A stretch of 64,000 bases of DNA from NCBI GenBank assembly GCA_037501455.1, contig CM074858.1, forward strand, positions 35,523,001 to 35,587,000, given 5' to 3'. A program made the position numbers and the translations under genes. Below the pieces are notes generated by a model. The model saw only the letters and a list, made by a program, of their open reading frames with translations. It had not been told where the DNA came from and made no database searches. This document shows positions 7,248 through 52,256 of this stretch, in pieces. The first letter of the stretch is position 1. The number at the start of each line of letters is the position of its first letter. The stretch is from Lantana camara (taxonomy: Eukaryota; Streptophyta; Magnoliopsida; Lamiales; Verbenaceae).

Positions 7248-7304
7248 GATTGCAAGAAGAAAGAAAGTGTTTCACTCAAGATCGAGGTAGAGAGAAGTGT
7301 AGTT

Positions 7305-17204: not shown

Positions 17205-17207
17205 TTC

Positions 17208-18123: not shown

Positions 18124-18257
18124 TATGATGTCCCACTTTCATCTTCTTCCAAGATGATCTCTTTCTTGTAACAATCCAACTTAGCTCGGTACTTAGACAA
18201 CCAATCCATACCAAGTATAACATCGTATCTTATCATCGGCAAGTCAATAAGATCCGT
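18124..18257 (-). pseudogene. C-terminal end of protease, Tek-B, cut by a deletion junction
   Basis: In frame with the RT below it, the minus strand encodes VILGMDWLSKYRAKLDC and its flanks, the hallmark end of gypsy protease. The sequence stops being element-like at about 18258, where it joins the LTR of element C. Everything upstream (protease active site, gag, primer site, 5' LTR) is missing. Confidence 0.85.
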
Positions 18258-25571: not shown

Positions 25572-25591
25572 GCAACCGGGCTCTAATACCA
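25572..25591 (-). other. Primer-binding site of Tek-D
   Basis: The minus strand reads TGGTATTAGAGC then CCGGTT. This is the initiator tRNA-Met site TGGTATCAGAGC with one change, 7 bp from the LTR end. Confidence 0.75.
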
Positions 25592-29388: not shown

Positions 29389-29464
29389 AATCCATCACCA
29401 TCATCTTCATCTTCATCGGATCTTTCTTTGAGCTAGTTGAGCTATAACACCTTTTACTCTAAAC

Positions 29465-29940
29465 ATGGTAACTGCGACTAGGTCTGGTGTTGTGGGTCAC
29501 AGGGGTGTTCTTCCTCCTGATCAAGAAGGAAACGTGGATACCAACACCCCCACTGGACGCACGCCCCCACCAACTCTAGAAAATAGGACTGGGAACACAG
29601 AGATCGCTGTTGCAGCCCTTCCCACCAATGGAAATGGCGTAGGAGGATCCGGCTCTATTCCTCCTCCATCGTCTTTCATTCCCTCTGTTCCAGCTTCCCA
29701 TCCCGGAGTGTACTCGATGGCCATGCCACCCCCGGGATACTCGTATGTACAACCCGGAGTGATGCCCGGGGTGGTACCAAGCATGGTGCCCGTAGTACCG
29801 CCCTACCCAGTGGGCACCCTAAAAATCCCTGTATCCTTGCCGGATGAAATTCAAGGAGTGGAGGCGCCCCAGCTAGCCCAACAGCAGCTTAAGGCGATCT
29901 ACGCGCAGTGTGAAGTATAGGCCGCTCAGAAGGCATGGAC
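29465..29940 (+). pseudogene. Gag N-terminus of Tat-2, cut by copia insertion
   Basis: 151 codons from the first ATG after the primer site (MVTATRSGVVGHRG) to a TAG at 29918-29920, then seven more in-frame codons to the edge of the copia LTR at 29941. The protein is Pro/Gly/Val-rich (PPPGYSYVQPGVMPG) like the Tat-1 gag N-terminus. It ends QLAQQQLKAIYAQCEV. The rest of a Tat gag-pol resumes at 50992 on the same strand, after the copia complex. No other 5' part for that gag exists in the window. Confidence 0.75.
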
Positions 29941-31904: not shown

Positions 31905-33352
31905 GCCCGTCAAAGCCATTCTAAAGCTACTCTAAGTCCTATCTTCTGAAGATGTCCTTGGAAAGCTTCTCGACTAAGGGGTTTAGTAAGTGGATCTGCC
32001 ACGTTCACTGCTGATGTAACCCTCTCAATTTGCACATCTCCTCTTTTGATAATATCACGGATTAGGTGATACTTCCTCATAATGTGTTTGGTCCGTTGGT
32101 GAGATCTTGGTTCTCTTGCTTGGGCAACCGCCCCAGTGTTGTCACAAAACACAGAAATGGGGTCTTTCATGCTAGGAGCAAGATTCAACTCTTGAATGAA
32201 GTTTCTAATCCAAACACCTTCCTTAATGCAGCTAAGTATTCGGCCTCAGTGGTCGAATCTGCAGTGATTGTTTGCTTGGAACTCTTCCAACTCACTACTC
32301 CACCGTTTAGGCAGAAAATGTATCCTGACATTGACTTAAAATCATCTAAGTCAGATGCAAAGCTTGCATCGCAGTATCCTTCGACAGTAAGATCTTTCTG
32401 ACCTCCGTAAACTAAGAATAAATCTTTAGTACTTTTCAAGTACTTAAGAATATTCTTCACGACAGCTCAGTGACCATCTCCAGGGTCAGATTGGAAACGA
32501 CTTGTCACACTAAGTGCATAAGCCACATCCGGTCGAGTACATAACATTGCATACATTATGCTACCTATTGCTGACGCATAAGGTGTATGTGTCATTCTCT
32601 CCTTCTCAAGGTTACTCCTAGGACACATCTTCTTTTAAAGACATGTTCCTACACTCATAGGAAGGTTCTTAACCTTTGCTGACTCTATATTGAATCTCTT
32701 CAATACTTTGTCCATGTACATCGACTATGATAGTCCTATTAACCTTCTAGATCTATCTCGATAGATTTTAATTCCAAGGATATAGGATGCATGACCAAGA
32801 TCTTTCATCTCGAATTGGTTCGATAACCACAACTTAGTAACTTTCATGTCATCCTTCGAATTCCCAATAAGAAGGATGTCATCAACATAAAGTACTAAGA
32901 ATTGCACTGAGGTCTCCAATTCCTTTCTATACACACATGATTCATTCGAAATTTGACTGAAGCCAAACGCTTTGACTGATTCATCAAATCGAATATTCCA
33001 ATTCCTAGAAGCCTGTTTCAATCCATAGATTGATCTTTGGAGTTTGCAAACGTTTTGCTCACTCCCACTGAACGTGAAACCTATGGGTTGCTCCATATAA
33101 ATGTCTTTGTCAATTTCACCATTGAGAAAGGCAGTTTTCACATCCATTTGCCATATCTCATAGTCATAATATGCAGCAATGGCAAGCATGATCCGAATAG
33201 ACTTTTGCATTGCAACTAGCGAAAAGGTTTCATCAAAGTCCACGTCGGGTCTTTGAGTGAATCCTTTTGCAACCAGTCTTGCTTTGTAGGCTGCAATGCT
33301 TCCATCAACTCCAAGCTTTCTCTTAAAGATCCATTTGCAACCTATGGGTTTG
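31905..33352 (-). pseudogene. Copia RT (C-terminal part) and RNase H, internal part 1
   Basis: Read on the minus strand from 33352: PIGCKWIFKRKLGVDGS, WQMDVKTAFLNGEI, SIYGLKQASRNW, then the catalytic YVDD (32878-32889), which is intact. The frame ends at a stop at 32725. RNase H follows in pieces: EGYCDASFASD and TTEAEYLAAL (32185-32460), then VFCDNTGAVA, KHIMRKYHLIRD and ADPLTKPLS (31910-32188). There are several stops and a short deletion near 32225. The protein is cut abruptly at 33352 where LTR-2 begins, in the middle of RT. The text is about 97% like 42851-44325 by eye. Confidence 0.9.
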
Positions 33353-35306
33353 TGTTGGAAAACACGAATCAGAAAGCAGCGGAATTTAAAAAATTTTCCC
33401 AACAAAAGGACCTTGAACTCGCAATCGTGTAACCAAATTCGTAAAGATAGAAAACTTACTTTTCTTTTATTCTTTCTTGAAGCGTTTCAAGCCACCCAAG
33501 AACGCTCTTCACGCGGCTTGATCCCCTCTCCTTGGTAAAGCTCGAATCTTCAAACTTCTAACTTGAAGTCTCTAGAGAAAGTCCACCAACTTGATCACAA
33601 TCTAACTAGTAAGGATGCTAGTTCTCTAGTTAGTGTTTAGGCTTAACCTAGGGTTTAATTTAATCTTGGAGAAAGGAAGGTGTTCAACACATGAACCAAG
33701 AATTGTCAATTAGCTCTAAAGGAGCTCGAGCTCCCCTATTTATAGAGAGAGGGTGCCGATCCAAATCCTAGTTGGGAAAGGATTTGGTTCCTCTCTCTCC
33801 TATTACTTGATCATCAAGTATTTTCCAACTTTGACTTTGAATTCTAATTCAAGTCAACTTTTAAGAGAGCTAATAATATCCAAACTATTTTTGGATAATT
33901 TTATACTTTATTTATTATAAAATAAATAACTTATTTTTATCTAATTAATTAATTCATAATTAATTAACTAGATTATTTTTCTCCAAAATAAGACTTTCTT
34001 TTTAATTCAAAATTAAACCAAAGTCTATTAAATAATTAACTAATTAATTATTTAATATATATATATAATATAATATATATATACACACGTGTGTCACACG
34101 TGTCACAGTGACACGTGTCACTCACGTGAGCCACACGTGTGATTTCACACGTGTGTAACCCTCTTGGCCCGATTAACACGTTTAATCATTTTCAAGCCTC
34201 CACTCATGTAACCAAGTTGTTGTGTGTGACCCTCTAGGTTCTCAATTCAATTAGCAGTGACCCTAATTAATTAATTCACTAATTAATTAATCAGTCCACA
34301 GATTAAACGACCATAGTCTAGCAACAGGTGTTTAACCCCTAGCTGAATTGGAATGTTCGGATTCGACAGAACCTTTAAGTCATTGATTCATGTGAGATAC
34401 AATCCTCCTACTTACTATCTCTCAACCAAGATCTAGGGCAAGGGAATAATCAGAACCCTAATAATCCGGTCTTAAAGCTAAGTGCATTTCATATCCATTT
34501 GATCTCAATCCAAGAAGCCCTTTTCTTGATGTCTTGATCTACTGCCTTGGCCAAGGACTCCATATGGCATATGAAAGACTTACACAATAAGAGATCACCT
34601 TGCATATGCAAGTGTAGGTCCTTTCTTGATTCTCATTCACTTTCATGAATCACTTGTGCAGCCCCAGCATAAGCCTTGAATCAGTTGTCTAAGGCGACAC
34701 CCTTTAAAGCTTATACCAAAGACTACAGAGTTAATTCATAAAGTGACAAGGAACCTCAAGTCTAAGGATCAATTAATCACATCAATGACTCGTGAGATAT
34801 TTCCTAATCTGGAAGTTTCCATTTCCTGAAATAGAAACTTCCTTTCCCATTTAGGAATGTTCTCACACGGGGCACCTCAGTGAACTTACTTATTAAAGTA
34901 AGCACCCTCATGTATCACGCACGTATCAACTATACACTTTGCACCTCCATGAAACAAGGTGGTCCTTCTTAAGGGCGTGATCCCACAAGCAAGCCTTAGA
35001 GGAGTCAGGTTGACACTCCCACTGTCTGTAGGACTCATCGGCTTGGAGTATTTTACTAATCATGACTTATGTGATATAGGGCTCGTTTCATGAACCATTT
35101 CACCTAAATGGTAGAGTCCTAAAGTCATCAGGATTAGGGGAGTTCTCATACATGCGCACATAATGGAAACACTCAAAACACGTATTGGCATATAAAGAAG
35201 TGTTTGCCTATAATCAATCGTATATTATTCAAAGATTGTCTGTGATACAAGAAAAATCCCAAAGCAGATTACGTCGAATCGGCTTTCTAGGGCACTATTC
35301 CTAACA
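33353..35306 (-). repeat. Copia LTR-2 (3' LTR of Cop-2)
   Basis: 1954 bp. A minus-strand TATA (33733-33749, CTCTCTATAAATAGGGG) and an ACACGTGT cluster at 34085-34155 are present. The last ~150 bp (35157-35306) are a variant form not shared with the other three LTRs. The left flank is GTTTG inside RT of the first copia. Confidence 0.92.
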
Positions 35307-38300
35307 ATCTCCCACTTGCCCGTAAAAGCCATTTAGGTATTCTAAGTCCCATCTTCTCAAGATGCACTTTGAGAGCCTATTGACTTTGGGCGTTTCCAAA
35401 GTGGATATGCTATATTCTCTGCTGATGTGACCCTCTTGTTTACACATCTCTTAGGAAACACCTTTTCCTTATAAAGTGATTCGTAATCACGTGTTCAGTC
35501 TCTTGGTGAGGTCTTGGTTCTCTTACTTGAGCAACCATCCATTTTATCATACAATATGATTAAGGAGTTGTTTCATGCTAGGAACTTCATCTAACTGGTT
35601 AGATGGAGTTTCTTACCCAAACACTTAACTTAGAGTTATATAATACGACTAAGTTCTCAACTACGACAGTCGAGTTTTTGCAATGTCCGTCCTTGGAACC
35701 CTTTCCAACACATTGCATTACCATTCTGGTAGAAGTTGTATCCTTGCAATGATTTCATAATCATCCATGTTTGATGAACGGTTACATCAAATATCCTTCT
35801 AACAACAAGATCTTTTGGGCTCTGTAAACTAATACATATCCTCATTTCTTCTCAAGTACTCTGAGGACATCCTTTACAGAGATCTAATGACCTTCTCTGA
35901 GGTCATATTAGATTCGGCCTACTACGCTTAGTGTTGTGCCATATCTAATTTAGTACATAACTTTTCATACATTATGCACCCTTTCACTTAAAGGGATTTT
36001 GGACATTCTAACTTTCTCAAAGTTTATCTTAGGACACATACTCTTCAAAAGAGACGTTCCATTGTCCATACTAAACTCCTTTTAGTACCGTGGTTATGTA
36101 CTCATTTTGTGATAATCCTTTTATTCTCTTAGATCTATCTTCTATAGATCTGAATGTCGAGAATATAGAATAATCACTAAGATCTTTCATGTCAAATTGT
36201 TTCTTAAACAATTGGTAACTTTCACGTCATCCTTGACATTCCTAATGAGAAGGACATCGTCTTCTAAAGAACCAAAATTGACTCTTACATCACTAACTTT
36301 CATATGTACACTTTTAAGACTTATTCGACTTCTATCTGTGTCAAACGATTTGACTATCCTATGGAATCGAATTGTCTAACTCCTAGAAGCCTTTATCAAT
36401 CCACAGATTGACTTTAGGGATTTGCATACCTTATGCATACTCCCACTGAATATGAGATTTATAGAAATACCTTATTTCACTCTCTTTCAATCTCATATTG
36501 AACAAGATAGTTCTCATATTCATTTATCATATCTCATAGTCAGAATATGAGGATATGGTAAACACAACCCAAATGGACTTTTGCATTTCAACCGTCAAGA
36601 AGGTTGTAATGCTTTCCATTTACTCGAAGCTCTAGGAGCTTGATCCTATCAGGTGGATCAACCAAGGTCAAAAACTCGGTGTAAGTATATGGAATCCATA
36701 TTGGATTTCAAGGCTTGCTTACACTACTCAGATTCCAAATCTGACAGTGTCTCCTCTTCAAGTAATTCCTTGGCTATCTAGGAACGCGTTCTAAACGCAT
36801 CTTAAGAGAAGGGTTTCACACGTGTACATGCTCTAAAATTTGGCTAAGTTTTTATCAGATGGGCTCGTTTCTTCTATATGTGGCGTGGATATTTATTCTC
36901 AAATTTCTTTGAGGTCTGCTTGCTTGTCTTTCTTCTTCTATAGGAACGATTCCTTAAGAAAGATACATTCCTTGAGACAAACAACCTTTGTCTAAGGGAA
37001 TCGCAGAAATGATATCCAATATCATTGTATAAACTTGAACTCATTTCAAGCTTATCTCCCACTATCCTCTTCAAGTAAGAGGATTCCATTGAATTCTTGG
37101 ATAAGAATAATTAGGGAATTTAGTATGCCACTTTGCATAGTGCAACTGAAGGACTGATTTTGGAAGGTACTAAATTCAAAATCTCTAACTGCATATTGTA
37201 GGAGTTTATTCCTAGAATGATTATAAGTCAGTAAAGCTTGCTATGGAATGGACCATATCCTATAGGGTTTCATTCCCTCATTCAGAAACACTAAGGTGTT
37301 CTCGAATTAGTTTACTGAGAGATAATCCTATTATCTCTAAGATGACTAAGGAATTAGTTACTAAGATATTGGCTATCTCGATCATATCGATTTACCTATA
37401 ACTTATGACTACTTCGGTTCCTAACCTCCTTTTGAAATTCTAAGAATTTCATATAAGTTTCGAATTTGTACTTTAACAAGTACATTCATTCATAATGATT
37501 AAACTGACGATTGTATCTAATGCTTACATTAAGCATCTTACACTCATCAGTATGGATCGAAATCCACTATAATTTTTGGAACGTTCCATGTTTCACCTAA
37601 ACAATGTTCCGGGAACGTTTTCCCTTTGAGATAGGATTCACAGGAAGTCAACTCTATAGGTTCATTTTCATAGAATGATCCTAAGGTGTCTGACTTGCTA
37701 ATCCTTTTATATCTCAACGTTCCAAAGTAATTCGAAGCTTTGTCATCTCACTGACTTTTGTTATCTCGTTGTATGTTCAGAACATTAGTGCCTTGAGTCT
37801 TTGCACAACGGATTATGCTGAATTGACTCAAGACTAGTGAATTCTATTCCTAGTAGAATTACTAAACGAGGTAACATTTCAGAGTACTCATACTCTTTGC
37901 AGTTCCCTTTCAAAGTCCTTATTTGCTATCATAGAAGCAAACGTCCTGTTTGATCTCTAGTGTCTTTTGGGCACACCCCTTACATGCCCCTCCATTGGGC
38001 TCTTAAGGGTTTCTTCTTCTTTAGGCGTTCAAGCCTTTAACTTAGGGAGTTTTAGAAGAAGAATTAACCATCACAACCTTTTATTTCTTCTTAAGGATGC
38101 TTTCAACCATTATCAACTAAATGATTAACTATGCTACATTAGCATCATTCTAGTTGAGCATAAAGGGTTTGAATGGTGGTGGAAGCAATGCAAGCAATCA
38201 GTGCATTGAGAACTCTTTTCTCAGTTAATGATCGAGACCACAAGATCTTCAAATAAGATCTTTAGACCTTGTTCATGTGCACTTGTTTCCTCATTTGGAA

Positions 38301-38766
38301 TATTGAATAATTCCACAATGTTATACCTTGTAACATTTTTATGAGGTGGTTCAATTGCTCTTAAGTGGTTTGGAAAAATCCATTTACCTAAGATTGCTTC
38401 TCTTTTGGCCCGGGTCGACTTTTCACAATTGAAAACTTCGCCCTTTAGAGAACGCCTTTCTCTAGTCGGATTCTAAAATGAATTTTAGGATCCGAAGCCA
38501 TTTAGAGTTAGTCAGGACTTGGTCAACTTATTTGACTTAAGGATGGATACGAATGGGTTTGCATTTCATATTGTAGAGAATCACAGAACTACAACCTAAA
38601 TGCTAAGCAGAGAAAATGTGGGCATGCTGAATTATAACGATATACAAAAGATAAGGTCTTTAATCTAATGTAGCTCCCACTGTTTTTCAAAGATCTATAA
38701 TTCCCAAAGATCTAAGAGGAACACGTTTCCCAATGGGTACTAAGATCCTAAGCATTTTACCTTGAA

Positions 38767-39087
38767 CCCACGACTCGCGGACATTCTAAGCAAAATCCTA
38801 GGTAGGTACAACTTACCAATTCTAACACCTTTAGAACTCTTAGTAATTGTTTTTGCATCACCTATCTTTCAATATGGACCCACGACTCGTGCGACATCCA
38901 TATTTACTTAGGCGTTTAAGCTAGACCCATCAATCATAAGATCATGATCAAAACTTAGTTCGAACGACCCACGACTCGCGGACATCGCCCTTGCCAAAAT
39001 TAACCACGAAATATTGATCATTTAAAATGATCAATTAGGTAACTAAGAACTAATAAGCTCCACTAGCTATCCCACGACTCGCGGACA
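38767..39087 (-). repeat. 17-bp motif CCCACGACTCGCGGACA, four copies in the Cop-2 leader
   Basis: Copies at 38767, 38879 (variant CGTGCGACA), 38968 and 39071, plus view. The same four occur in internal 3. Sequence between copies is AT-rich and unrelated. Confidence 0.9.
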
Positions 39088-40239
39088 ATAACTAGCTTTA
39101 CTTACTAAACTTAAAACCTATTGATGGAATGCTAGGAATTTAATTCAAAATTTGCATCTCGAATTAAATACCTATTATTCGAAATGAGCTTAATATTTAA
39201 TGGGAATTTTCGAATCAACCGAAGAGTTGTTCGGTTCGACCTCACCAACATATATGTTATCCAATTTTATTAGTCTTGATTAATGCAAGTACACTTAAAT
39301 GCATTTCAAACAAGCACATAAACAGATAACATGTCCTAGCATGATACTAACATGTAATGATCATGGGTTCTACCTATCTTATGCGTGATATGTGGGAGCC
39401 ACTCCACAATCACAAGTTCTAACATACATGCCACATAAACAGTTCAAATCACATAAGGGAAAGCGGTAACAAAATACTAGCCCTATCTCTATTACATTTA
39501 ACAATTGAGATTCCCCTCCCTAACATTTTGAGGGGTCTTCACTTATGGCCTCCTTGTTACTTGAATGTGGTCCATCTTACTCCATGGGTGCATTGTCTCC
39601 AAAATGAAAATAAAACCTCACCACCTATCTCTACTCTCAAATTACAATAAAAAGAAAAAGACATAAAGTAATGAGGCTCAATCTTCATATTGGCCTTAGA
39701 CAATTACACGGGGCATACCCCGGCCTTAAAAACAGTAATATGGAAAGCCACATAATAAATCACATAACAGTACGCACATAAGTGAGGCTCCAACCTCAAT
39801 TGAAAAACGCAACTATAGGGCTCCAACCCCAATTTAAACCATCCATGTGCACAAATTAAAACCATACATAGATCTAAACCCATGATCACCTAACATGCTT
39901 GGAATGCAAGAATTTAAATTTAACCAATAAATTAAAATTCTCGCTTTAAGCTCTAATAGCTTAAAACACGACTTAGATGCAATTCTTGTTCAAGAGCCTT
40001 TTTCTATAAAACCCGAAAAACTATAAACTAATAAAATTCCAATTAATTTCTGAAAATTAATAATTTTATTCTTTCAATATTTTCATAAAATAAAGATCGT
40101 AATTTTCCCAAAATTTAAATCGATTTTAATTTCTCAAAATCCCAATTTAATCAAAATTTTAAAATTAATTTTATTTTGATAAAACTGATTTCAAAAGATA
40201 AAATTAAAATAAAATTAAATCGGGATTTTTAAGGACCGA

Positions 40240-40640
40240 AACCACGAAACACGAAAACACGAAAACATGCCCGAAACCACCGGTTCATGAGGGCACCGCC
40301 GCGCGGCAGCATGCGCGCGCGCGAGCGCCAGCAGCGCGCACAGCGTGCGGCAGTTGCCGCCCGAGTGCGCGCGCTGGGCGCGCACGCCACACGCGCGTTG
40401 CGCGCAGCAGTGCCCCGCGTGTGCGGGCAGTCTCGGCCAGGCTCCCGCGCGGTTGCGGGAGGTGCTAGGTTGGACGTCCCGCGCGGTTGCGGGACGTGTG
40501 GGCGGTGACTCCCACACGGTTGCGGGAGCCTCGTGCGGGCAGTCCCGCACGGTCGCGGGACTGGTGAGCGGCGACGATTGGCTAGGCCTCGCGTGCTACG
40601 CCTTAGCACGCGTGAGCCTGGCCTTTTTTTGTTCGTAACG
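40240..40640 (-). repeat. GC-rich island with hairpin array in the Cop-2 leader
   Basis: About 400 bp of very GC-rich DNA in an AT-rich leader. Hairpins with TCCCGC/GCGGGA stems lie at 40442-40461, 40475-40496, 40509-40528 and 40540-40563 (spacing 33, 34 and 31 bp), with a shorter one at 40413-40427. Outer bases change but still pair. Long ORFs over this island in several frames are an effect of base composition. Confidence 0.85.
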
Positions 40641-40894
40641 CGATTTCGTGTTTCGTATCTCAAGTTTCTCAGAACCAATTCAATCCAAAAATTAAAATTA
40701 CGATTTAAACGAATTTCAACTAAAACAGCTTTTCAAAAACAGATTTAAGAAACAGTTTTCAGAAATTCAAGAAAAATTACAGTTTCGTATTTCAGGCTTT
40801 CTAAAAGAACTCATGAATACCTAATTCGCATCTAAGCCTAAGAATTTCTATCAAATTCAGAATAATTGAGACGAATCAGAAACACGATTAACGA

Positions 40895-40910
40895 GGTGGC
40901 TCTGATACCA
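40895..40910 (-). other. Primer-binding site of Cop-2
   Basis: The minus strand reads TGGTATCAGAGCCACC, a full initiator tRNA-Met site, two bases after LTR-3. Confidence 0.92.
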
Positions 40911-40912
40911 CT

Positions 40913-42850
40913 TGTTGGAAAACACGAATCAGAAAGCAGCGGAATTTAAAAAATTTTCCCAACAAAAGGACCTTGAACTCGCAATCGTGTAACCAAATTC
41001 GTAAAGATAGAAAACTTACTTTTCTTTTATTCTTTCTTGAAGCGTTTCAAGCCACCCAAGAACGCTCTTCACGCGGCTTGATCCCCTCTCCTTGGTAAAG
41101 CTCGAATCTTCAAACTTCTAACTTGAAGTCTCTAGAGAAAGTCCACCAACTTGATCACAATCTAACTAGTAAGGATGCTAGTTCTCTAGTTAGTGTTTAG
41201 GCTTAACCTAGGGTTTAATTTAATCTTGGAGAAAGGAAGGTGTTCAACACATGAACCAAGAATTGTCAATTAGCTCTAAAGGAGCTCGAGCTCCCCTATT
41301 TATAGAGAGAGGGTGCCGATCCAAATCCTAGTTGGGAAAGGATTTGGTTCCTCTCTCTCCTATTACTTGATCATCAAGTATTTTCCAACTTTGACTTTGA
41401 ATTCTAATTCAAGTCAACTTTTAAGAGAGCTAAAAATATCCAAACTATTTTTGGATAATTTTATACTTTATTTATTATAAAATAAATAACTTATTTTTAT
41501 CTAATTAATTAATTCATAATTAATTAACTAGATTATTTTTCTCCAAAATAAAACTTTCTTTTTAATTCAAAATTAAACCAAAGTCTATTAAATAATTAAC
41601 TAATTAATTATTTAATATATATATATAATATAATATATATATACACACGTGTGTGACACGTGTCACAGTGACACGTGTCACTCACGTGAGCCACACGTGT
41701 GATTTCACACGTGTGGAACCCTCTTGGCCCGATTAACTCATTTAATCATTTTCAAGCCTCAACTCATGTAACCAAGTTGTTGTGTGTGACCCTCTAGGTT
41801 CTCAATTCAATTAGCAGTGACCCTAATTAATTAATTCACTAATTAATTAATCAGTCCACAGATTAAACGACCATAGTCTAGCAACAGGTGTTTAACCCCT
41901 AGCTGAATTGGAATGTTCGGATTCGACAGAACCTTTAAGTCATTGATTCATGTGAGATACAATCCTCCTACTTACTATCTCTCAACCAAGATCTAGGGCA
42001 AGGGAATAATCAGAACCCTAATAATCCGGTCTTAAAGCTAAGTGCATTTCATATCCATTTGATCTCAATCCAAGAAGCCCTTTTCTTGATGTCTTGATCT
42101 ACTGCCTTGGCCAAGGACTCCATATGGCATATGAAAGACTTACACAATAAGAGATCACCTTGCATATGCAAGTGTAGGTCCTTTCTTGATTCTCATTCAC
42201 TTTCATGAATCACTTGTGCAGCCCCAGCATAAGCCTTGAATCAGTTGTCTAAGGCGACACCCTTTAAAGCTTATACCAAAGACTACAGAGTTAATTCATA
42301 AAGTGACAAGGAACCTCAAGTCTAAGGATCAATTAATCACATCAATGACTCGTGAGATATTTCCTAATCTGGAAGTTTCCATTTCCTGAAATAGAAACTT
42401 CCTTTCCCATTTAGGAATGTTCTCACACGGGGCACCTCAGTGAACTTACTTATTGAAGTAAGCAACCTCATGTATCAACTATACACTTTGCACCTCCATG
42501 AAACAAGGTGGTCCTTCTTAAGGGCGTGATCCCACAAGCAAGCCTTAGAGGAGTCAGGTTGACACTCCCACTGTCTGTAGGACTCATCGGCTTGGAGTAA
42601 TTTACTAATCATGACTTATGTGATATAGGGCTCGTTTCATGAACCATTTCACCTAAATGGTAGAGTCCTAAAGTCATCAGGATTAGGGGAGTTCTCATAC
42701 ATGCACAGCTAAAGTAAACGCATACCAAACAAGAGCATATAAAGAAGTGTTGCCTCAATTCATTATTTCATTCAAAGATTGTTTGTGATTACAATAAGGA
42801 AAAGCACAAAGCGGATATACAATCGGCTTTCTAGGGCACTATTCGTAACA
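40913..42850 (-). repeat. Copia LTR-3, chimeric, shared by Cop-2 and internal 3
   Basis: 1938 bp. From 40913 to about 42700 it follows LTR-2 in nearly every variant site. From about 42703 to 42850 it follows LTR-1/LTR-4 (GCACAGCTAAAGTAAACGCA and onward). It serves as the 5' LTR of Cop-2 (primer site on its left) and the 3' LTR of internal 3 (polypurine tract at 42851-42861). TATA at 41293-41309, ACACGTGT cluster at 41645-41720. Confidence 0.92.
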
Positions 42851-42861
42851 ATCTCCCACTT

Positions 42862-43868
42862 GCCCGTCAAAGCCATTCTAAAGCTACTCTAAGTCACATC
42901 TTCTGAAGATGTCCTTGGAAAGCTTCTCGACTAAGGGGTTTAGTAAGTGGATCTGCCACGTTCTCTGCTGATGTGACCCTCTCAATTTGCACATCTCCAC
43001 TTTTGATAATATCACGGATTAGGTGATACTTCCTCATAATGTGCTTGGTCCGTTGGTGAGATCTTGGTTCTCTTGCTTGAGCAACCGCCCCAGTGTTGTC
43101 ACAAAACACAGAAATGGGGTCTTTCATGCTAGGAACAAGATTCAACTCTTGAATGAAGTTTCTAATCCCAACACCTTCCTTAGCTGCATCATTTGCAGCT
43201 AAGTATTCGACCTCAATGGTCGAATCTGCAGTGGTTGTTTGCTTGGAACTCTTCTAACTCACTGCTCCACCGTTTAGGCAGAAAATGTATCCTGACATTG
43301 ACTTAAAATCATCTAAGTCAGATGCAAAGCTTGCATCGCAGTATCCTTCAACAGTAAGATCTTTCTGACCTCCATAAACTAAAAATAAATCTTTAGTACT
43401 TTTCAAGTACTTAAGAATATTCTTCACGGCAGCCCAGTGACCATCTCCAGGGTCAGATTGGAAACGACTTGTCACACTAAGTGTATAAGCCACATCCGGT
43501 CGAGTACATAACATTGCATACATTATGCTACCTATTGCTGACGCATAAGTTGTATGAGTCATTCTCTCCTTCTCAAGGTTACTCTTAGGACACTTCTTCT
43601 TTTAAAGACATGTTCCTACACTCATAGGAAGGTTCTTAACCTTTGCTGACTCCATATTGAATCTCTTCAATACTTTGTCAATGTACATCGACTATGATAG
43701 TCCTATTAACCTTCTAGATCTATCTCGATAGATTTTAATTCCAAGGATATAGGACGCATCACCAAGATCTTTCATCTTGAATTGGTTCGATAACCACAAC
43801 TTAGTAACTTTCATGTCATCCTTCGAATTCCCAATAAGAAGGATGCCATCAACATAAATTACTAAGAA
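42862..43868 (-). pseudogene. RT C-terminus and RNase H of internal 3
   Basis: This continues the RT frame after a stop at 43869. The catalytic site (43845-43856) reads Y-V-D-G, so the second aspartate is lost and RT could not work even if translated. RNase H pieces are at 43254-43562 (TRPDVAYTL, EGYCDASFASD) and 42894-43145 (VFCDNTGAVA, ADPLTKPLS), in different frames. A stop and shifts near 43255 separate them. Confidence 0.88.
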
Positions 43869-44825
43869 TTACACTGAGGTCTCCAATTCCTTTCTATACA
43901 CACATGATTCATTCGAAATTTTACTGAAGCCAAACGCTTTGACTGATTCATCAAATCGAATATTCCAATTCCTAGAAGCCTGTTTCAATCCATAGATTGA
44001 TCTTTGGAGTTTGCAAACCTTTTGCTCACTCCCACTGAACGTGAAACCTATGGGTTGCTCCATATAAATGTCTTTGTCAATGTCACCATTGAGAAAGGCA
44101 GTTTTCACATCCATTTGCCATATCTCATAGTCATAATATGCAGCAATGGCAAGCATGATCCGAATAGACTTTTGAATTGCAACTGGCGAAAAGGTTTCAT
44201 CAAAGTCCACTCCGGGTTTTTGAGTGAATCCTTTTGCAACCAGTCTTGCTTTGTAGGCTGCAATGCTTCCATCAACTCCAAGCTTTCTCTTAAAGATCCA
44301 TTTGCAACCTATGGGTTTGACCCCATCAGGCAAATCTACCAAGGTACAAACTTGGTTGGAGTTCATGGAGTCCATTTCGGATTTCATGGCTTCTATCCCC
44401 TGTTCAGAGTCAGAATCTGAAAGTGTCTCCTCATATGTTACAGGATCATTATCCTTTTTAGAGATTTCATGGAAGAATCCATACCATCTCTCCGGCTGTC
44501 TAGGAGTGCGTTCAGAACTCCTTAGAGGAGGATTTTCGTGTGTATCGAAATTCGTGATTGGTTGTGGTTGATCAGAAGGGGAAGTTTCTTCAGTGGGTGG
44601 TGTGGGATCACTTTGTACTTCCTCTAATTCTATGTTCTTGCCTTTCTTTTCTTTAAGGAACGGTTCCTCAAGAAAAGTGGCATTTCTGGAAACAAACACC
44701 TTTTGCTCAGCTTGATCATAGAAGTAATATCCTATGGATTCCTTAGGATAACCTACAAAGTAGCATAAGTTAGAACGAGATTCTAACTTATCTCCCATTG
44801 TCCTCTTCACGTAAGCAGGACAACC
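43869..44825 (-). CDS. RT N-terminal part of internal 3 (Tnt1-like copia)
   Basis: 313 residues. It opens with the end of the integrase-RT linker (FVSRNATFLEEPFLKEKKG), an acidic/Pro-rich spacer, then RT proper: KPIGCKWIFKRKLGVDGS, GVDFDETFSPVA, WQMDVKTAFLNGDI (first catalytic Asp) and SIYGLKQASRNW. It is in the same frame as integrase upstream (one TGA at 44826) and is cut by a TAA at 43869 shortly before the catalytic aspartate pair. Confidence 0.92.
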   Translation of the reverse strand, partial: GCPAYVKRTMGDKLESRSNLCYFVGYPKESIGYYFYDQAEQKVFVSRNATFLEEPFLKEKKGKNIELEEVQSDPTPPTEETSPSDQPQPITNFDTHENPPLRSSERTPRQPERWYGFFHEISKKDNDPVTYEETLSDSDSEQGIEAMKSEMDSMNSNQVCTLVDLPDGVKPIGCKWIFKRKLGVDGSIAAYKARLVAKGFTQKPGVDFDETFSPVAIQKSIRIMLAIAAYYDYEIWQMDVKTAFLNGDIDKDIYMEQPIGFTFSGSEQKVCKLQRSIYGLKQASRNWNIRFDESVKAFGFSKISNESCVYRKELETSV

Positions 44826-45548
44826 TCAAATTCTTAAGTAAGAATAACTAGGGATTTTACCATGCCACATTTCATAGGGCGTTTTAGGGACTGACTTTGA
44901 GGGAACTAGATTCAAAATCTTTGCTGCACTTTCTAGGGCATAACCCCAGAAAGAAGGTGGTAAGTCAGTAAAACTCATCATGGAACGAACCATATCTAGT
45001 AGGGTTCGATTCCTTCTCTCAGAAACTCCATTAAGCTGAGGAGTTCCCGGAGGAGTCCACTGAGCGATAATCCCATTATCTTTGAGATGATTAAGGAATT
45101 CTTCACTAAGATATTCGCCTCCTCGATCAGATCGAAGTGCTTTGATCTTGTGACAAGTTTGGTTCTCAACCCCCTTTTGAAATTCTAAGAATTTCTCAAA
45201 AGATTCAGATTTATACTTCATTAAGTATACATAACCATATCGACTAAAGTCATCAGTAAAGATTATGAAATACTGATGATTGTTTCTAGTGCTTACACTA
45301 AGCGGTCCACAAACATCAGTATGGATCAAATCTAAGACCTCAGTGGCACGTTCCACAGTTCCTTTAAAAGGAACTTTGGACACTTTTCCTTTGAGACAAG
45401 ATTCGCAAGAAGTTAACTCTTTAAGATCATTTTCAGAGAATGATCCTAAAGTGTTTATCTTGCTAATTTTGTTCTTGGAAATGTGTCCTAATCTAGCGTG
45501 CCATAAGGGAGCTGAAACTTTGTCATCTTTCTTACGCTTCGTTTCTCG
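44826..45548 (-). CDS. Copia integrase of internal 3
   Basis: In frame with gag-protease after a single stop at 45549. The zinc region is LWHARLGHIS followed by CESCLKGK. The core shows IHTDVCGPL, RSDRGGEY and NGVSERRNRT, the three acidic motifs of copia integrase. PYEMWHGKIPSY follows. It ends at a TGA (44826) in the conserved stretch after YLRI. The first start codon lies at 45383, but the domain begins at about 45540. Confidence 0.92.
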   Translation of the reverse strand, partial: RETKRKKDDKVSAPLWHARLGHISKNKISKINTLGSFSENDLKELTSCESCLKGKVSKVPFKGTVERATEVLDLIHTDVCGPLSVSTRNNHQYFIIFTDDFSRYGYVYLMKYKSESFEKFLEFQKGVENQTCHKIKALRSDRGGEYLSEEFLNHLKDNGIIAQWTPPGTPQLNGVSERRNRTLLDMVRSMMSFTDLPPSFWGYALESAAKILNLVPSKSVPKTPYEMWHGKIPSYSYLRI

Positions 45549-46787
45549 TTATATATTCATAATATTGATATTTTGAGTTAGATAAAGTCCATTACTTAGA
45601 GTACCGGTGTGAACGGAAGAGTTGTTCCGTTTGATAAAATATTTACCATTCTTAATATAAGTTTCATAACCTTCACAATCTAATAATGGAACTGAAATTA
45701 TATTACGAATAATGCTCGGTACATAAAGGACTTTATTTAAGACTAACTCAAAACTACCTAAATCTAATCTAATTGTGTCTAAAGCTTGAGCTTCAACGTT
45801 TGAGCCATCACCGATCTTCAAGACACATTCTCCTTCTTTGAGTTGTTGGACTTCACTTAGCATCTGTACATCATTACAGATATGAGTTCCACAACCGGTA
45901 TCAAGTACCCAAGAACTAGAATTAATAGAAAGATTTACTTCAACGAGAAAGATACCTTTCTTTAGAGTAGCCTTGTACTCTGGGCAGTTTCTCCTCCAAT
46001 GTCCCGCTTTGCCACAATGGAAGCAAACATCCTCTTTCTGATCACGCTTCTTCTTTTGGGCCTTCCCCTTCGAAACGCCACCAGTGGGCCTAAGGGGTTT
46101 CTTCTTCTTCTTTTGGGCTTTCTTGCCCTTACCTTTAGAAGGCCCAGAACAGGAAGATGGAGCATTAACCATCAAAACCTTATTGTCCTTCTTGATCGTG
46201 CTTTCAGCAGTCACAAGCTGACTAATCAGCTCAGCTACAGTAGCACCAGCATGATTCATATTGAAGTTAAGGACAAATGGGTTGAATGATGGTGGGAGCG
46301 AAGCTAGCAACAAATCCACTGAAAGCTCATCTTTCCGTGGCATGTCCATGGAAGCAAGTTTCTCAGTAAGGGTGAGAAACTTGAGTCCATATTCATGGAC
46401 ACTTGAACCTTCCCTCATTCTGAAGTGGAACAATTCCTTTGAAGTGTTATACCTTGTAACACGTTCATGAGGGCGGTAAAGTTGCTCTAAGTGGTCGTAA
46501 ATCTCCCAAGCGAATTCCATGGCCTCATGTTGCCTTTGCAAGTCCGGAGACATGTTAGCCAACATAAGGCAACGGGCTTGGAGATTATCATCCTTCCACT
46601 TCTGAATCGCGTCCCGCTCGGCCCGAGTGGGAGCCTCCCCTTCGGGACTAGGCTCCCCTTCGAAGAGAACATAAGTTCTCTTCTCAGAATCTAAAATGAT
46701 TTTTAGATTCCTCAGCCAATCAGAATAGTTGGGACCAGTCAACTTGTTTGACTCGAGGATCGATACAAGAGGGTTTTTGGATGCCAT
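45549..46787 (-). CDS. Copia gag-protease of internal 3
   Basis: 412 residues starting MASKNPLVSILESNKLTGPN. The gag domain covers about 1-210 (UBN2-like: NYSDWLRNLKIIL, YDHLEQLYRP, ELFHFRM). A basic linker (KKKKKP repeated) precedes one CCHC zinc knuckle, CFHCGKAGHWRRNC. The protease active site follows: SWVLDTGCGTHIC. The frame ends at one in-frame stop before integrase. This is the best preserved copia protein in the window. The ATG is the first in frame after a stop-rich leader and fits the family's usual N-terminus. Confidence 0.93.
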   Translation of the reverse strand: MASKNPLVSILESNKLTGPNYSDWLRNLKIILDSEKRTYVLFEGEPSPEGEAPTRAERDAIQKWKDDNLQARCLMLANMSPDLQRQHEAMEFAWEIYDHLEQLYRPHERVTRYNTSKELFHFRMREGSSVHEYGLKFLTLTEKLASMDMPRKDELSVDLLLASLPPSFNPFVLNFNMNHAGATVAELISQLVTAESTIKKDNKVLMVNAPSSCSGPSKGKGKKAQKKKKKPLRPTGGVSKGKAQKKKRDQKEDVCFHCGKAGHWRRNCPEYKATLKKGIFLVEVNLSINSSSWVLDTGCGTHICNDVQMLSEVQQLKEGECVLKIGDGSNVEAQALDTIRLDLGSFELVLNKVLYVPSIIRNIISVPLLDCEGYETYIKNGKYFIKRNNSSVHTGTLSNGLYLTQNINIMNI

Positions 46788-49042
46788 TTCAAAACACGTA
46801 GAGAATCACAGAATCTACGACCTAAATGGTAAAACAGAGAACTTAGTGAGCATGCTGAATTATAACGATATACAAAAGATAAGGTCTTTAATCTAATGTA
46901 GCTCCCACTGTTTTTCAAAGATCTATAATTCCCAAAGATATAAGAGGAACACGTTTCCCAATGGGTACTAAGATCCTAGGCATTTTACCTTGAACCCACG
47001 ACTTGCGGACATTCTAAGTAAGAACCCCAGGTAGGTACAACTTACCAATTCTAACACCTTTAGAACTCTTAGTAATTATTTTTGCATCCCACGACTCGTG
47101 CGACATCCATATTTACTTAGGTGTTAAGCTAGACACATCAATCATAAGATCATGATCAAAACTTAGTTCGAACGACCCACGACTCGCGGACATCGCCCTT
47201 ACTAAAATTGATCACGAAATATTGATCATTTAAAAGGATCAATTAGGTAACTAAGAACTAATAAGCTCCACTAGCTATCCCACGACTCGCGGACAATAAC
47301 TAGTTTCACTTACTAAACTTAAAACCTATTGATGGAATGCTAGGAATTTAATTCAAAATTTGCATCTCGAATTAAACACCTATTTGTTCGAAATTAGCTT
47401 AATATTTAATGGGAATTTTCGAATCAACCGGAGAGTTGTCCGGTTCGACCTCACCAACATATATGTTATCCAATTTTATTAGTCTTGATTAATGCAAGTA
47501 CACTTAAATGCATTTCAAACAAGCACATAAACAGATAACATGTCCTAGCCTGATTCTAACATGTAATGATCATGGGTTCTACCTATCTTATGCGTGATAT
47601 GCGGGAGCCACTCCACAATCACAAGTTCTAACATACATGCCACATAAATAATTTAAATCACATAAGGGAAAGCGGTAACAAAATACGAGCCCTATCTCTA
47701 TTACATTTTTACAATTGAGATTCCCCTCCCTAACATTTTGAGGGGTCTTCACTTATGGCCTCCTTGTTACTTGAATGTGGTCCATCTTACTCCATGGGTG
47801 CATTGTCTCCAAAATGAAAATAAAACCTCACCACCTATCTCTACTCTCAAATTACAATAAAAAGAAAAAGACATAAAGTAATAAGGCTCAATCTTCATAT
47901 TGGCCTTAGACAATTACACGGGGCATACCCCGGCCTAAAAAACAGTAATATGGAAAGCCACATAATAAATCACATAACAGTACGCACAAAAGTGAGGCTT
48001 CAACCTCAATTGAAAAACGCAACTATAGGGCTCCAACCCGAATTTAAACCATCCATGTGCATAAATTAAAACCATACATAGATCTAAACCCATGATCACC
48101 TAACATGCTTTTGCGAGAATTTAAATTTACCCAATAAATTAAAATTCCCGTTTCAAGTCTTAATGACTTAAAACACGAATTGATGCGAGTCTTATTTATA
48201 AAAGTTTTCAATAAATCCCAAATTGGTAAAACAATTAAAGTTCCAATTAATTTCTAAAAATTAATAATTTTATCAAAGATATATTTTCCCAAAATATAAA
48301 TCGTTTCAATTTCTCAAAATTCTCAATTTTAAGTTTTATTCAAAAATTAAAATAAATATTCAAAAATAAAATTTTAAAATTAAAATAAAAATTGGGACTG
48401 GATTTCACGAAATACGAAAACGGATTACGAAGGAAAAACGGGGCCCGTACGCGAAGAGGGCGGAACGTCACAGGCGTGCGCGCGGGCACGCAACAGGCTC
48501 GCACAGCGCGCGGTGAAGGCCGCACGAGTGCGCGCGCTGGGAGTGCACGCCGCGAGCTCCTTTGCGCGGCCCATCTCGGCCATGTGCGGGCGACGGGCGG
48601 CTAGTCTCGGCAGCCCTTGGCGGGCGCGCCTACGCGCGCCCGGAAGGCTCCCGCATGGCGTGCGGGAGGTGCTGGGCGGGATGACCTGCGCGCCTGGGCA
48701 GGCGGGCGGTGCGCGCGAAGCCCGCGCGCGCGACACCTTCGCTCGTGGGGTTTCGGGTGTTCGTCGTATTCCGTGTTTTCGTTTCGTGTTTTTGTTCAAA
48801 AGCAAAACAAATCCAAGAAATCCAAAAACAGTTTATACAGTTTCAAATCTAAAATAGTTTTCAAAAATTAAATTTTGCTAAAACCAATTTTCAGAAACTT
48901 TAGGAAAAATTACAGTTTCGTAATTCAGGCTTTCTAAAACAATTACAAATACTCAATCGCATCAAGCCTAAGAATTTCTACCAAATTCAGTATAATTGAG
49001 ACGAATCAGAAACACAATTAACGAGGTGGCTCTGATACCACT
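46788..49042 (-). other. 5' leader of internal 3
   Basis: 2.25 kb of non-coding leader between primer site (49025-49040, TGGTATCAGAGCCACC on minus) and gag. It holds four copies of the 17-bp motif at 46995, 47088, 47176 and 47279, and a GC-rich island at about 48430-48750 with CTCCCGC/GCGGGAG pairing near 48649-48668. ORFs over the GC island are composition artefacts. Such a long leader before gag is unusual for copia. Confidence 0.8.
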
Positions 49043-50991
49043 TGTTGGAAAACACGAATCAGAAAGCAGCGGAATTCAAAAAAATTTCCCAACAAAAGGA
49101 TCTAGAACTCGCAATCGTGTATCCAAATTCGTAGAGTTAAGAAACTTACTTTTTTTTTATTCTTTCTTGAAGCGTTTCAAGCCACCCAAGAACGCTCTTC
49201 TCGCGGCTTGATCCCCTCTCCTTGGTAAAGCTCGAATCTTCAAACTTCTAACTTGAAGCTCTCTAGAGATAGTCCACCAACTTGACTACAATCTCACAAA
49301 TAAGGATGCTAGTTCTCTAGTTAGTTTTTAGGCTTAACCTAGGGTTTCGTTTATCTTGGAGAAAGGATGGTGTTCAACACATGAACCAAAAGAATTGCTA
49401 ATTAGCTCTAAGGGGAGCTCGAGCTCCCCTATTTATAAGAGGTAAGTGGCCGAAAATCCCTAGTCCTTATGGGCTTAGGATTTTGGTCCCTCTCTCCTAT
49501 TACTTGATCATCAAGTAATTTTGACTTTGACTTTGAATTCAAATTCAAATCAACTTTCAAGAGAGCTAAAATATCCAAACTATTTTTGGATAATTTTATA
49601 CTTTATTTATTTAAAATAAATAACTTATTTTATCTAATTAATTAATTCATAATTAATTAACTAGATTATTTTTCTCCAAAATAAGACTTTCTTTTTAATT
49701 CAAAATTAAACCAAAGTCTATTAAATAATTAACAAATTAATTATTTAATATATATATATACAATATATATATTTACACGTGTGGAACACGTGTCACAAGG
49801 ACACGTGTCACTCACGTGACCCACACGTGTGGTTTCACACGTGTAGAACCCTCTTGGCCCGATTAACTCTTTTAATCATTTTCAAGCCTCAACTCATGTA
49901 ACCAAGTTGTTGTGTGTGACCCTCTAGGTTCTCAATTCAATTAGTAGTGACCCTAGTTAATTAATTCACTAATTAATTAATCAGTCCACAGATTAAACGA
50001 CCATAGTCTAGCAACAGGTGTTTAACCCCTAGCTGAATTGGAATGTTCGGATTCGACAGAACCTTTAAGTCATTGATTCATGTGACATACAATCCTCCTA
50101 CTTACTATCTCTCAACCAAGATCTAGGGTAAGGGAATAATTAGAACCCTAATAATCCGGTCTTAAAGCTAAGTGCATTTCATATCCATTTGATCTCAATC
50201 CAAGAAACCCTTTTCTTGATGTCTTGATCTACTGCCTTGGCCAAGGACTCCATATAGCATATGAATGACTTACACAATAAGAGATCACCTTGCAAATGCA
50301 AGTGTAGGTCCTTTCTTGATTCTCATTCACTTTCATGAATCACTTGTGCAGCCCCAGCATAAGCCTTGAATCAGTTGTCGAAGGCGACACCCTTTAAAGC
50401 TTATACCTAAGATTACAGAGTTAACTCATAAAATGACAAGGAACCTCAAGTCTAAGGATCAATTAATCACATCAATGACTCGTGAGATATTTCCTAATCT
50501 GGAAGTTTTCATTTCCTGAAATAGAAACTTCCTTTCCCATTTAGGAATGTTCTCACACGGGGCACCTCAGTGAACTTACTTATTAAAGTAAGCACCCTCA
50601 TGTATCACGCACGTATCAACTATACACTTTGCACCTCCATGAAACAAGGTGGTCCTTCTTAAGGGCGTGATCCTACAAGCAAGCCTTAGAGGAGTCAGGT
50701 TGACACTCCCACTGTCAGTAGGACTCATCGGCTTGGAGTATTTTACTAATCATGACTTATGTGATATAGGGCTCGTTTCATGAACCATTTCACCTAAATG
50801 GTAGAGTCCTAAAGTCATCAGGATTAGGGGAGTTCTCATACATGCACAGCTAAAGTAAACGAATACTAAACAAGAGCATATAAAGAAGTGTTGCCTCAAT
50901 TCGTTATTTCATTCAAAGATTGTCTGTGATTACAATAAGGAAAAGCACAAAGCGGATATACAATCAGCTTTCTAGGGCACTATTCCTAACA
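49043..50991 (-). repeat. Copia LTR-4 (5' LTR of internal 3)
   Basis: 1949 bp. Minus-strand TATA at 49427-49440. The perfect 20-bp palindrome AGGGGAGCTCGAGCTCCCCT at 49411-49430 adjoins it. ACACGTGT cluster at 49775-49845. Its right end abuts the Tat-2 gag. Confidence 0.92.
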
Positions 50992-51038
50992 ATGACGCAC
51001 TTTACCTCTGTGTACTTCCCCTCGAGCGCAGGGGCCAG

Positions 51039-52256
51039 ATGGCAGCACCTTTGGCGGGATTACAATTTCATCCCTTAACAGCCGCCTAAAATGTGCTGAG
51101 GGCACAGCCGCCTCCACCCGCACCAGCTCCAGAAAATGAAGACCCCCCGAGGGTCCCTCAAGGGCAGCAACCTGTAGAAAATGAAAGAGGCCCCCAGAGT
51201 GAGAGGGCTGGGAATGAAGAGGTCCAGTCAAGGGCCACTAAGAGGGCAAGCCGCAGAAATGTCGGCGACCCTCAACTGGCCGTAGTACAGAATCAATTGA
51301 ATGGACTCCAGAACCTGGTGGAGCAGCACTCTCGAGCGCGGTCTCAAGCTCCCCGCGCTGGGGGCGAGAGGTCCAAGGCCAGAGATACTCGCAATCCACG
51401 CAGCCTGAGGCTACGCTATTGGAGAGAGAAAAATGATGAGGACTACAGCCACGAGGGTGGGAACTACAGGCCTGTGTCGGGTGCTTCCCCTCTCATCGAC
51501 GAGGTCCTGATGACTCGTGTGGGAAAGGGTAAAATCCCCACATCTGTCAATCGGTACGATGGGACGACCGACCCAGTCGAGCACTTGGACCACTTTGTGC
51601 ACTTGATGCACTTATACAAGCACCCCAGCAACTATTGGGCCAAAGTCTTTGTCACCTCGCTCGTAGGGATGGCCCAGGAATGGTACAAGAAGCTGCCCCC
51701 TTGCTCCATCCGAGGGTACGGGCATTTGACCGGCACATTCATGAGCCACTTCAATTCCATGAAAGCGCCAGCACCTGCCGCGACAACTCTCTACAGCCTT
51801 GTCCAGGGGTCAAATGAGACGCTCAGGTCCTTTATGGGGAGATTTAATAAAGAGATCCTACTGGTTGAGAGGCCCTCGATGGACTTTTTGAGACATGTAC
51901 TTTTTGGGGCGATCAATATGAAAAATTATGTCAGCAAAGAATTTGTGGAAGAGGTGGCCAAGAAGAAGCCGCGCTCGTTGATGGAGATCAGGGACATAGC
52001 GGATTCCTTCTTCACCCTTGAGGATATGTACCTGGCAAGGGACCAGAAACTTGCCAATGCCCCTCGGCCAAGCAGAGGGTCGGAAGACAGAGAGCCCAAG
52101 AACCAGCACCGTAGCCCGGTGCCTGCTCGAAAGAACTCTCCCCCCCCCCCGGTCGGTTCGAGCGCATTCCCCTCAACAGTCCCATTGCGGAAGTATACTC
52201 CATGGCGGACAAAAAGCTTTTCAAAAGGCCACCGAAGATGAAGGAAACCAAGGTTT
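51039..52256 (+). CDS. Gag of Tat-2
   Basis: Open from 51093, with an in-frame stretch further upstream (51039 ATG, then a stop at 51087). The N-terminal 110 residues are Pro/Gln/Arg-rich. The retrotransposon gag domain runs from about residue 150: SVNRYDGTTDPVEHLDHF, WAKVFVTSLVGMAQEWYKKL, SFMGRFNKEI and EEVAKKKPRSLMEIRDIAD. The frame is lost at an 11-C run (52140-52150). The continuation (IPLNSPIAEVYSMADKKLF) lies in another frame up to a stop near 52254. The first ~30 codons after the copia LTR are of uncertain frame. Confidence 0.88.

What the first reader, a model, noticed from the sequence alone, without database searches (positions are those of the whole stretch)
40913..42850. Chimeric copia LTR records recombination between nested elements
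From 40913 to about 42700 LTR-3 agrees with LTR-2 at variant sites (start of LTR, the G-box cluster, TACCAAAGACTACAGAG). From about 42703 it switches to the LTR-1/LTR-4 form and lacks the variant tail of LTR-2 (35157-35306). The order LTR-1, part RT-RNase H, LTR-2, Cop-2, LTR-3, full internal, LTR-4 duplicates the RT-RNase H part (31905-33352 and 42862-44325). A crossover in LTR-3 between a chromosome carrying Cop-2 and either its homologue without Cop-2, or a second copia insertion elsewhere, yields exactly this order. The two RT-RNase H copies differ by about 3% by eye, against well under 1% for LTR-2 and the left part of LTR-3, so the partners were already divergent.
Basis: partly seen in the sequence, partly recalled or inferred. 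Interest (0 to 1): 0.75.

Follow-up and report, generated by a model that had tools for sequence, protein, structure and literature searches.

The report
Recombined LTR joining two plant retrotransposons
In what looks like a plant genome, related jumping-gene copies are fused through a shared terminal repeat that is part one copy and part another; this is a well-known kind of genome reshuffling, here with an unusually readable history.

Summary
Four copia LTRs on the minus strand surround a partial, a decayed and a nearly intact internal region. At 99 diagnostic sites (LTR1=LTR4, LTR2 different), LTR3 follows LTR2 at 63 of 65 up to 42295 and LTR1/LTR4 at 33 of 34 from 42705. Correction: no diagnostic site lies from 42296 to 42704, and LTR3-only changes place the crossover nearer 42296-42454; 35157 is where LTR2 itself becomes foreign.

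The cause is very likely LTR-LTR homologous recombination with a partner already about 3% diverged. The array most likely sits inside one Gypsy gag gene. A crossover with a homologue lacking Cop-2 is possible but needs alleles about as diverged as the insertion is old. An assembly join cannot be excluded without reads. Chimeric shared LTRs are a known kind of structure.

The parts
29941..31893 (-). LTR1, 3' LTR of the host copia (Cop-1); Gypsy gag to its left
   Evidence: TG...CA ends; PPT CAAGTGGGAGAT (reverse complement) directly to its right.
31905..33352 (-). I1: partial internal region of Cop-1 (RNase H and part of RT), ending at Cop-2's insertion point
   Evidence: 41/1448 differences from the stretch starting at 42862; ends ...GGGTTTG, where I3 continues ACCCC. 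RVT_2 (PF07727), 3.7e-59.
33353..35306 (-). LTR2, 3' LTR of Cop-2; about 35157-35306 is a foreign U3 head
   Evidence: cols 1815-1969 differ from LTR3 at 30/142, against 10/1738 for cols 1-1760.
35318..40912 (-). I2: internal region of Cop-2, a mosaic with decayed gag-pol (up to about 38640) and conserved leader parts (about 38640-39960 and by the PBS)
   Evidence: 93-98% to I3 in the bins from 38609 to 39803, 56-75% in the bins before that; tblastn stretches 31-54% aa (one 15-residue piece 73%), many stops.
40913..42850 (-). LTR3, chimeric: 5' LTR of Cop-2 on the left, 3' LTR of Cop-3 on the right
   Evidence: PBS on its left, PPT on its right, one main switch.
42296..42704 (.). Crossover interval by diagnostic sites; LTR3-only changes favour 42296-42454
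42851..49042 (-). I3: PPT, complete internal region of Cop-3, PBS at 49028-49042; gag-pol frame interrupted by two in-frame stops and ending inside RT
   Evidence: gag PF14223, zinc knuckle, GAG-pre-integrase, rve, SH3, RVT_2.
49043..50991 (-). LTR4, 5' LTR of Cop-3
   Evidence: PBS AGTGGTATCAGAGCC (reverse complement) to its left.
29441..29940 (+). Left flank: N-terminal part of a Gypsy gag ORF, cut by LTR1
   Evidence: weak match (DTNTP motif, E 0.03 against only 5 sequences) to the gag N-terminus of a second Gypsy in the window; no Pfam match.
50992..52241 (+). Right flank: rest of the Gypsy gag ORF
   Evidence: Retrotrans_gag PF03732, 6.7e-9; 4 of 7996 scored proteins match at E 0.001, three named as plant, 28-34% identity; 28% over 376 columns to the second Gypsy, 7e-35.

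Best explanation
LTR3 is the product of homologous recombination between the 5' LTR of Cop-2 (a young, non-autonomous copia nested in RT) and the 3' LTR of a copia copy about 3% diverged from the nest's host. Most likely route: (1) a copia landed in a Gypsy gag gene as, or soon became, a tandem LTR-I-LTR-I-LTR sharing a middle LTR; (2) the two internal copies diverged by about 3%; (3) Cop-2 inserted into RT of the left copy; (4) Cop-2's 5' LTR paired with the middle LTR, some 4.7 kb away if the lost part was as long as in I3, and recombined on the same chromosome, deleting the target-site duplication, the rest of the left internal region and one LTR equivalent, and leaving one chimeric LTR. 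Shown here: anatomy, the switch, the missing right TSD, three divergence values, gag on both flanks. Inferred: the prior tandem, the order of steps, the same-chromosome deletion. The broader claim (LTR-LTR recombination with a diverged partner) I put at about 0.85; the score is for the full route.
For: One switch fits 96 of 99 sites. I1 stops at GGGTTTG, the uninterrupted RT site in I3, while PPT and a whole internal region follow LTR3. I1-I3 divergence (41/1448) equals LTR1-LTR4 divergence (56/1949 within the LTRs; 59/1960 with 11 flanking columns): ratio 0.94, 95% interval 0.62-1.39 (using 59/1960), as expected if the tandem is as old as the insertion. In cols 1554-1969, LTR1-only, LTR4-only and LTR3-only substitutions number 4, 5 and 5, a star. 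LTR2-LTR3 divergence is about fivefold lower (0.58%). Gag lies on both outer flanks in the same direction. LTR1-LTR4 differences are evenly spread (dispersion p 0.41), so LTR4 shows no patch. Tandem LTR-RTs sharing LTRs are common in plants (PMC11899658).
Against: It needs one step more than a single crossover with a homologue. The outer 5-mers TGGAC and ATGAC agree at 3 of 5 positions (chance 0.10), so a flanking TSD is not proven. Family members that inserted independently also differ by about 2-4% (I2 leader against I3 leader, 39005-39803), so equal divergences do not prove a tandem. No protein matched the joined Gypsy flanks. No intermediate haplotype and no reads were available.
Confidence: 0.45

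Rival explanations
1. Unequal allelic crossover: Cop-2's 5' LTR on one chromosome recombined with LTR1 of the homologue that lacked Cop-2, giving LTR1-I1-Cop-2-LTR3/1'-I'-LTR4'.
For: One event gives the order; gag on both flanks is expected; the right part of LTR3 is LTR1/LTR4-like.
Against: I1 and I3 would be alleles 2.8% apart, about as diverged as the element is old (ratio 0.62-1.39). A recent sister-chromatid or low-diversity allelic event is rejected (P 5e-9 even at the upper limit of the LTR2-LTR3 rate). No substitution is shared by LTR1 and LTR3 against LTR2 and LTR4 (0 columns), though few would be expected.
Confidence: 0.2
2. Two independent copia insertions: the nested Cop-1/Cop-2 and a separate Cop-3 to its right, or at another locus, recombined LTR to LTR (a recombinant complex in the sense of Sabot and Schulman), or Cop-3 (as DNA or cDNA) replaced the right side by double crossover or conversion.
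For: The outer 5-mers are not identical and the outer LTRs differ by about 3%, in line with the published marks of this class (PMC1950507). About 3% is also family-level divergence.
Against: Both flanks are gag in the same direction. From the gag ATG to the first anchor shared with the window's other Gypsy there are about 208 codons here (159 left, 49 right) against about 136 there, so no large gap is evident; this stretch aligns poorly, so small gaps are not excluded. LTR4 shows no patchwork against LTR1.
Confidence: 0.17
3. The crossover is old, and later gene conversion between LTR2 and LTR3 reset their similarity, stopping where LTR2 becomes foreign. The low LTR2-LTR3 divergence is then not Cop-2's age.
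For: Conversion was predicted in 25% of LTR pairs in plants (PMC7251063, passages). 693 columns (861-1553) hold no LTR2-LTR3 difference.
Against: Conversion alone cannot remove the TSD and the rest of RT, so a crossover or deletion is still needed; five LTR3-only substitutions remain in cols 1554-1969.
Confidence: 0.1
4. Assembly artefact: two LTRs were collapsed or mis-joined.
For: LTRs are about 1.95 kb and alike (pairwise differences 2.1-6.1%); no reads could be inspected.
Against: LTR3 carries its own substitutions on both sides of the switch and an 11-bp deletion; the window has no Ns; both flanks are gag in the same direction.
Confidence: 0.08

Closest known systems
Recombinant complex LTR retrotransposons (Sabot and Schulman 2007, PMC1950507, whole text read; they cite Devos et al. 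2002, which I could not read)
   Same: Two elements share a middle LTR that is a chimera; outer LTRs diverged; no perfect flanking TSD.
   Different: Here one partner was nested in RT of the other, so a truncated third internal copy and a fourth LTR remain, and the array most likely lies within one Gypsy gag.
Tandem LTR-RTs in plants (Morales-Diaz et al. 2025, PMC11899658; parts 1-2 of 6 and passages read)
   Same: LTR-I-LTR-I-LTR array sharing an LTR within one insertion site, in one case inside another transposon.
   Different: The shared LTR here is a chimera that involves a further, younger insertion; the simple tandem itself is inferred.
[quoted passage not shown]
   Same: Like Cop-2: degenerate coding region with many stops, LTRs close to those of an autonomous partner.
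   Different: Family and species not matched here; Cop-2 also carries a foreign U3 head.
Recombinant Onsen progeny (Sanchez et al. 2017, PMC5668417, abstract and section list read)
   Same: Intra-family recombination makes mosaic elements, a likely origin of Cop-2's own mosaic.
   Different: That recombination occurs during transposition; the LTR3 chimera is post-insertional.

Membership tests
Ty1-copia LTR retrotransposon | Gag, integrase before reverse transcriptase, copia-type RT | tested here: met
   PF14223, PF00098, PF22936, PF13976, PF00665, PF25597, PF07727 in that order in I3; RVT_2 in I1; 7799 of the 7984 scored candidates match the RT piece at E 0.001 or less.
Ty1-copia LTR retrotransposon | TG...CA LTRs, PBS and PPT | tested here: met
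   The PBS as initiator-methionine type is recalled, not from a call.
Recombinant complex (shared chimeric LTR) | Middle LTR is a chimera of two LTRs | tested here: met
Recombinant complex (shared chimeric LTR) | Outer LTRs from different insertions, no flanking TSD | tested here: inconclusive
   TGGAC against ATGAC, 3 of 5; outer LTRs about 3% apart.
Template-switching complex | Flanking 5-bp TSD and near-identical outer LTRs | tested here: inconclusive
   TSD imperfect; outer LTRs 97% identical, which may be age. The present array as a whole does not fit, because LTR2 and most of LTR3 are of another sub-type; it could still describe the inferred earlier tandem.
Non-autonomous copia (Cop-2) | Recent insertion with a non-coding internal region | tested here: met
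   LTR2-LTR3 10/1738 in cols 1-1760; broken gag-pol.
Non-autonomous copia (Cop-2) | Mobilised by proteins of a partner | not testable with these tools
   Inferred from shared LTR and leader.

The most novel reading that the evidence does not exclude
The star-like 4:5:5 pattern and the equal I1-I3 and LTR1-LTR4 divergences record a tandem that was born with its insertion (dimeric cDNA or template switch) rather than by later crossover, and the later Cop-2 nest kept half of its middle LTR. If so, comparing internal-copy with outer-LTR divergence is a simple test of how plant LTR tandems arise, which PMC11899658 leaves undecided (passages).
Probability: 0.25. Interest if true: 0.45.

Novelty: new member of a known kind. 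Interest (0 to 1): 0.25.

Why it matters
Such loci show how LTR recombination trims and rebuilds plant genomes. This one lets the order of events be read from three internal clocks, and it warns that an outer LTR pair or a shared LTR must not be used blindly for dating. It does not change what is known about mechanism.

Tried and rejected
Rejected: recent sister-chromatid or low-divergence allelic duplication (I1-I3 far more diverged than LTR2-LTR3). Rejected: gene conversion as the only process (it cannot remove the TSD and the rest of RT). Rejected: normal reverse transcription making the LTR3 chimera directly (it renders both LTRs of an element identical, PMC1950507, and LTR2 keeps the foreign head). 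Led nowhere: search for proteins covering the Gypsy gag N-terminus and junction (2779 candidates, none at E 0.001); a Gypsy LTR pair around the array (best a 146-bp, 69% match, 25591-25736 with 62354-62496); paper search (two papers; by titles and abstract starts neither is on this structure); Devos et al. 2002 not held. Paper searches behind the novelty grade, seen as listings apart from the papers named. The abstract of PMC5491270 was read and is not used as evidence.

Full report
Anatomy. The window holds four copia LTRs of about 1.95 kb on the minus strand: LTR1 29941-31893, LTR2 33353-35306, LTR3 40913-42850, LTR4 49043-50991. Read on the minus strand, a PBS (AGTGGTATCAGAGCC) follows LTR4 and LTR3, and a PPT (CAAGTGGGAGAT) precedes LTR3, LTR2 and LTR1. 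LTR3 is therefore the 5' LTR of Cop-2 and at the same time the 3' LTR of Cop-3. Cop-3's internal region (42851-49042) has gag, zinc knuckle, integrase and copia RT pieces. Its long frame is interrupted by two in-frame stops and ends inside RT. I1 (31905-33352) is a matching RNase H-RT part.

The observation. At sites where LTR1 and LTR4 agree and LTR2 differs, LTR3 follows LTR2 at 63 of 65 up to 42295 and LTR1/LTR4 at 33 of 34 from 42705; one split fits 96 of 99, and none of 20000 site shuffles does as well. The 193 variable columns also include sites where LTR1 and LTR4 differ or LTR3 matches neither; these were not counted. The shuffle ignores linkage, so it shows order along the LTR, not which LTR changed. 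What marks LTR3 as the recombinant is structure: reverse transcription makes the two LTRs of one element identical, LTR2's foreign head runs on into Cop-2's equally foreign pol, and to the right of LTR3 stand PPT and a complete internal region where the duplicated target site and the rest of RT should be.

Where the crossover is. That is only where LTR2 turns foreign (35157). From 42296 to 42704 no site tells LTR2 from LTR1 and LTR4 together. LTR3-only substitutions are 1 in 1383 columns up to 42295 and 5 in 555 beyond (Fisher p 0.009), and an 11-bp deletion sits at 42471, so partner sequence probably starts by 42455. A direct comparison of LTR2-LTR3 substitutions on the two sides of 42295 (7/1383 against 3/409) is not significant (p 0.70), so this refinement is modest.

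Clocks. LTR2-LTR3, cols 1-1760: 10/1738 (0.58%). I1-I3: 41/1448 (2.8%). LTR1-LTR4: 59/1960 in the first alignment, 56/1949 (2.9%) when the 11 columns past the LTR end are left out. At the LTR2-LTR3 rate about 8 differences would be expected in I1-I3; 41 has P 5e-16, and 5e-9 at the upper confidence limit. The right part of LTR3 (cols 1554-1969) differs from LTR1 at 10/396 and from LTR4 at 11/396, with 4, 5 and 5 substitutions private to LTR1, LTR4 and LTR3. The partner was thus diverged before Cop-2 arrived, and I1, I3, LTR1, LTR4 and the right part of LTR3 look like one radiation.

Flanks. Left of LTR1 an open frame (29441-29920) carries what looks like a gag N-terminus; it has no Pfam match and only a weak match to the N-terminus of the window's second Gypsy (E 0.03 against 5 sequences). 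Right of LTR4 an open frame in the same direction carries Retrotrans_gag (PF03732, 6.7e-9), followed by Gypsy pol. The array therefore most likely interrupts one Gypsy gag gene. The exact empty site could not be proven: no protein matched the joined stretch, no clear Gypsy LTR pair was found around the array, and the outer 5-mers TGGAC and ATGAC agree at 3 of 5 positions, which chance gives one time in ten. Read as ATGGAC and ATGAC they differ by one extra G on the left.

Cop-2 is itself a mosaic. Against I3 its leader is 93-98% identical in the bins from 38609 to 39803 and its gag-pol 56-75%, and the change is abrupt (41/51, 51/57, then 60/60 in successive 60-column bins ending at 38584, 38641 and 38701). 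Gag-pol is littered with stops. Yet LTR2 and LTR3 are 99.4% identical over cols 1-1760. It looks like a non-autonomous copia that shares LTR and leader with the autonomous lineage, as described for wheat RLC_Angela (PMC9744471, passages). The foreign U3 head is expected to have been in both LTRs at insertion, which is why its absence from LTR3 matters.

Routes. Apart from an assembly join, each route that I found to fit needs LTR-LTR homologous recombination. The allelic route takes one event but requires alleles about as diverged as the insertion. The independent-insertion route explains the poor TSD but should leave a gap in the Gypsy gag; none is evident, but the stretch aligns poorly. The tandem route (tandem, nested Cop-2, same-chromosome deletion between Cop-2's 5' LTR and the middle LTR) uses only common steps and makes the older divergences equal. 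I favour it at 0.45. The equality is not proof, since independent family members also differ by about 2-4%.

Known or new. Shared chimeric LTRs from recombination are an established class: Table 1 of PMC1950507 lists 20 recombinant and 2 template-switching complexes in about 7 Mb of Triticeae sequence (whole text). Tandem LTR-RTs sharing LTRs are common in plants (PMC11899658, parts 1-2 and passages). LTR clocks can be disturbed by conversion (PMC7251063, passages). The locus is a new member of a known kind. The host species is unknown; among the 120 RT relatives listed the named ones are flowering plants (Sesamum, Hibiscus, Tanacetum and others), the best named at 64% identity over 82% of the query and 60% over its full length, so a flowering plant is likely (inference).

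Noticed in passing
30678-30731, 34086-34153, 41646-41713, 49776-49843: Each LTR has a cluster of G-boxes (CACGTG): 5 in LTR1, 6 in each of the others, at 11/15/11/11/14-bp spacing. This may mean control by bZIP/bHLH factors (recalled). One paper search on G-boxes in LTR retrotransposons gave 6 papers, none on such a cluster by title and abstract start (listing only).
   Followed up: partly
35157-38640: Foreign or decayed block in Cop-2 spanning the U3 head, PPT and gag-pol, next to near-identical LTR and leader sequence: a non-autonomous mosaic copia.
   Followed up: partly
40003-40796 and 48208-48929: GC-rich part of the leader is poorly conserved between Cop-2 and Cop-3 (50-72%) although the leader on its gag side is 93-98% alike. 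It carries open frames on both strands; the two tested, both in I3, have no Pfam match.
   Followed up: no
15018-18722 and 24384-24848: Minus-strand Gypsy with chromodomain (PF00385), RT and integrase, and a 465-bp direct repeat pair 97% identical at 18258-18722/24384-24848, perhaps LTRs of this or another element.
   Followed up: no
1438-7271: Second Gypsy element on the minus strand, related (66-68% DNA in two pol stretches) to the plus-strand Gypsy at 29441-56445.
   Followed up: no
41655-41761: 5 of the 10 LTR2-LTR3 substitutions in cols 1-1760 fall within about 107 bp of LTR3 in and just right of the G-box cluster, perhaps a mutable or converted patch.
   Followed up: no
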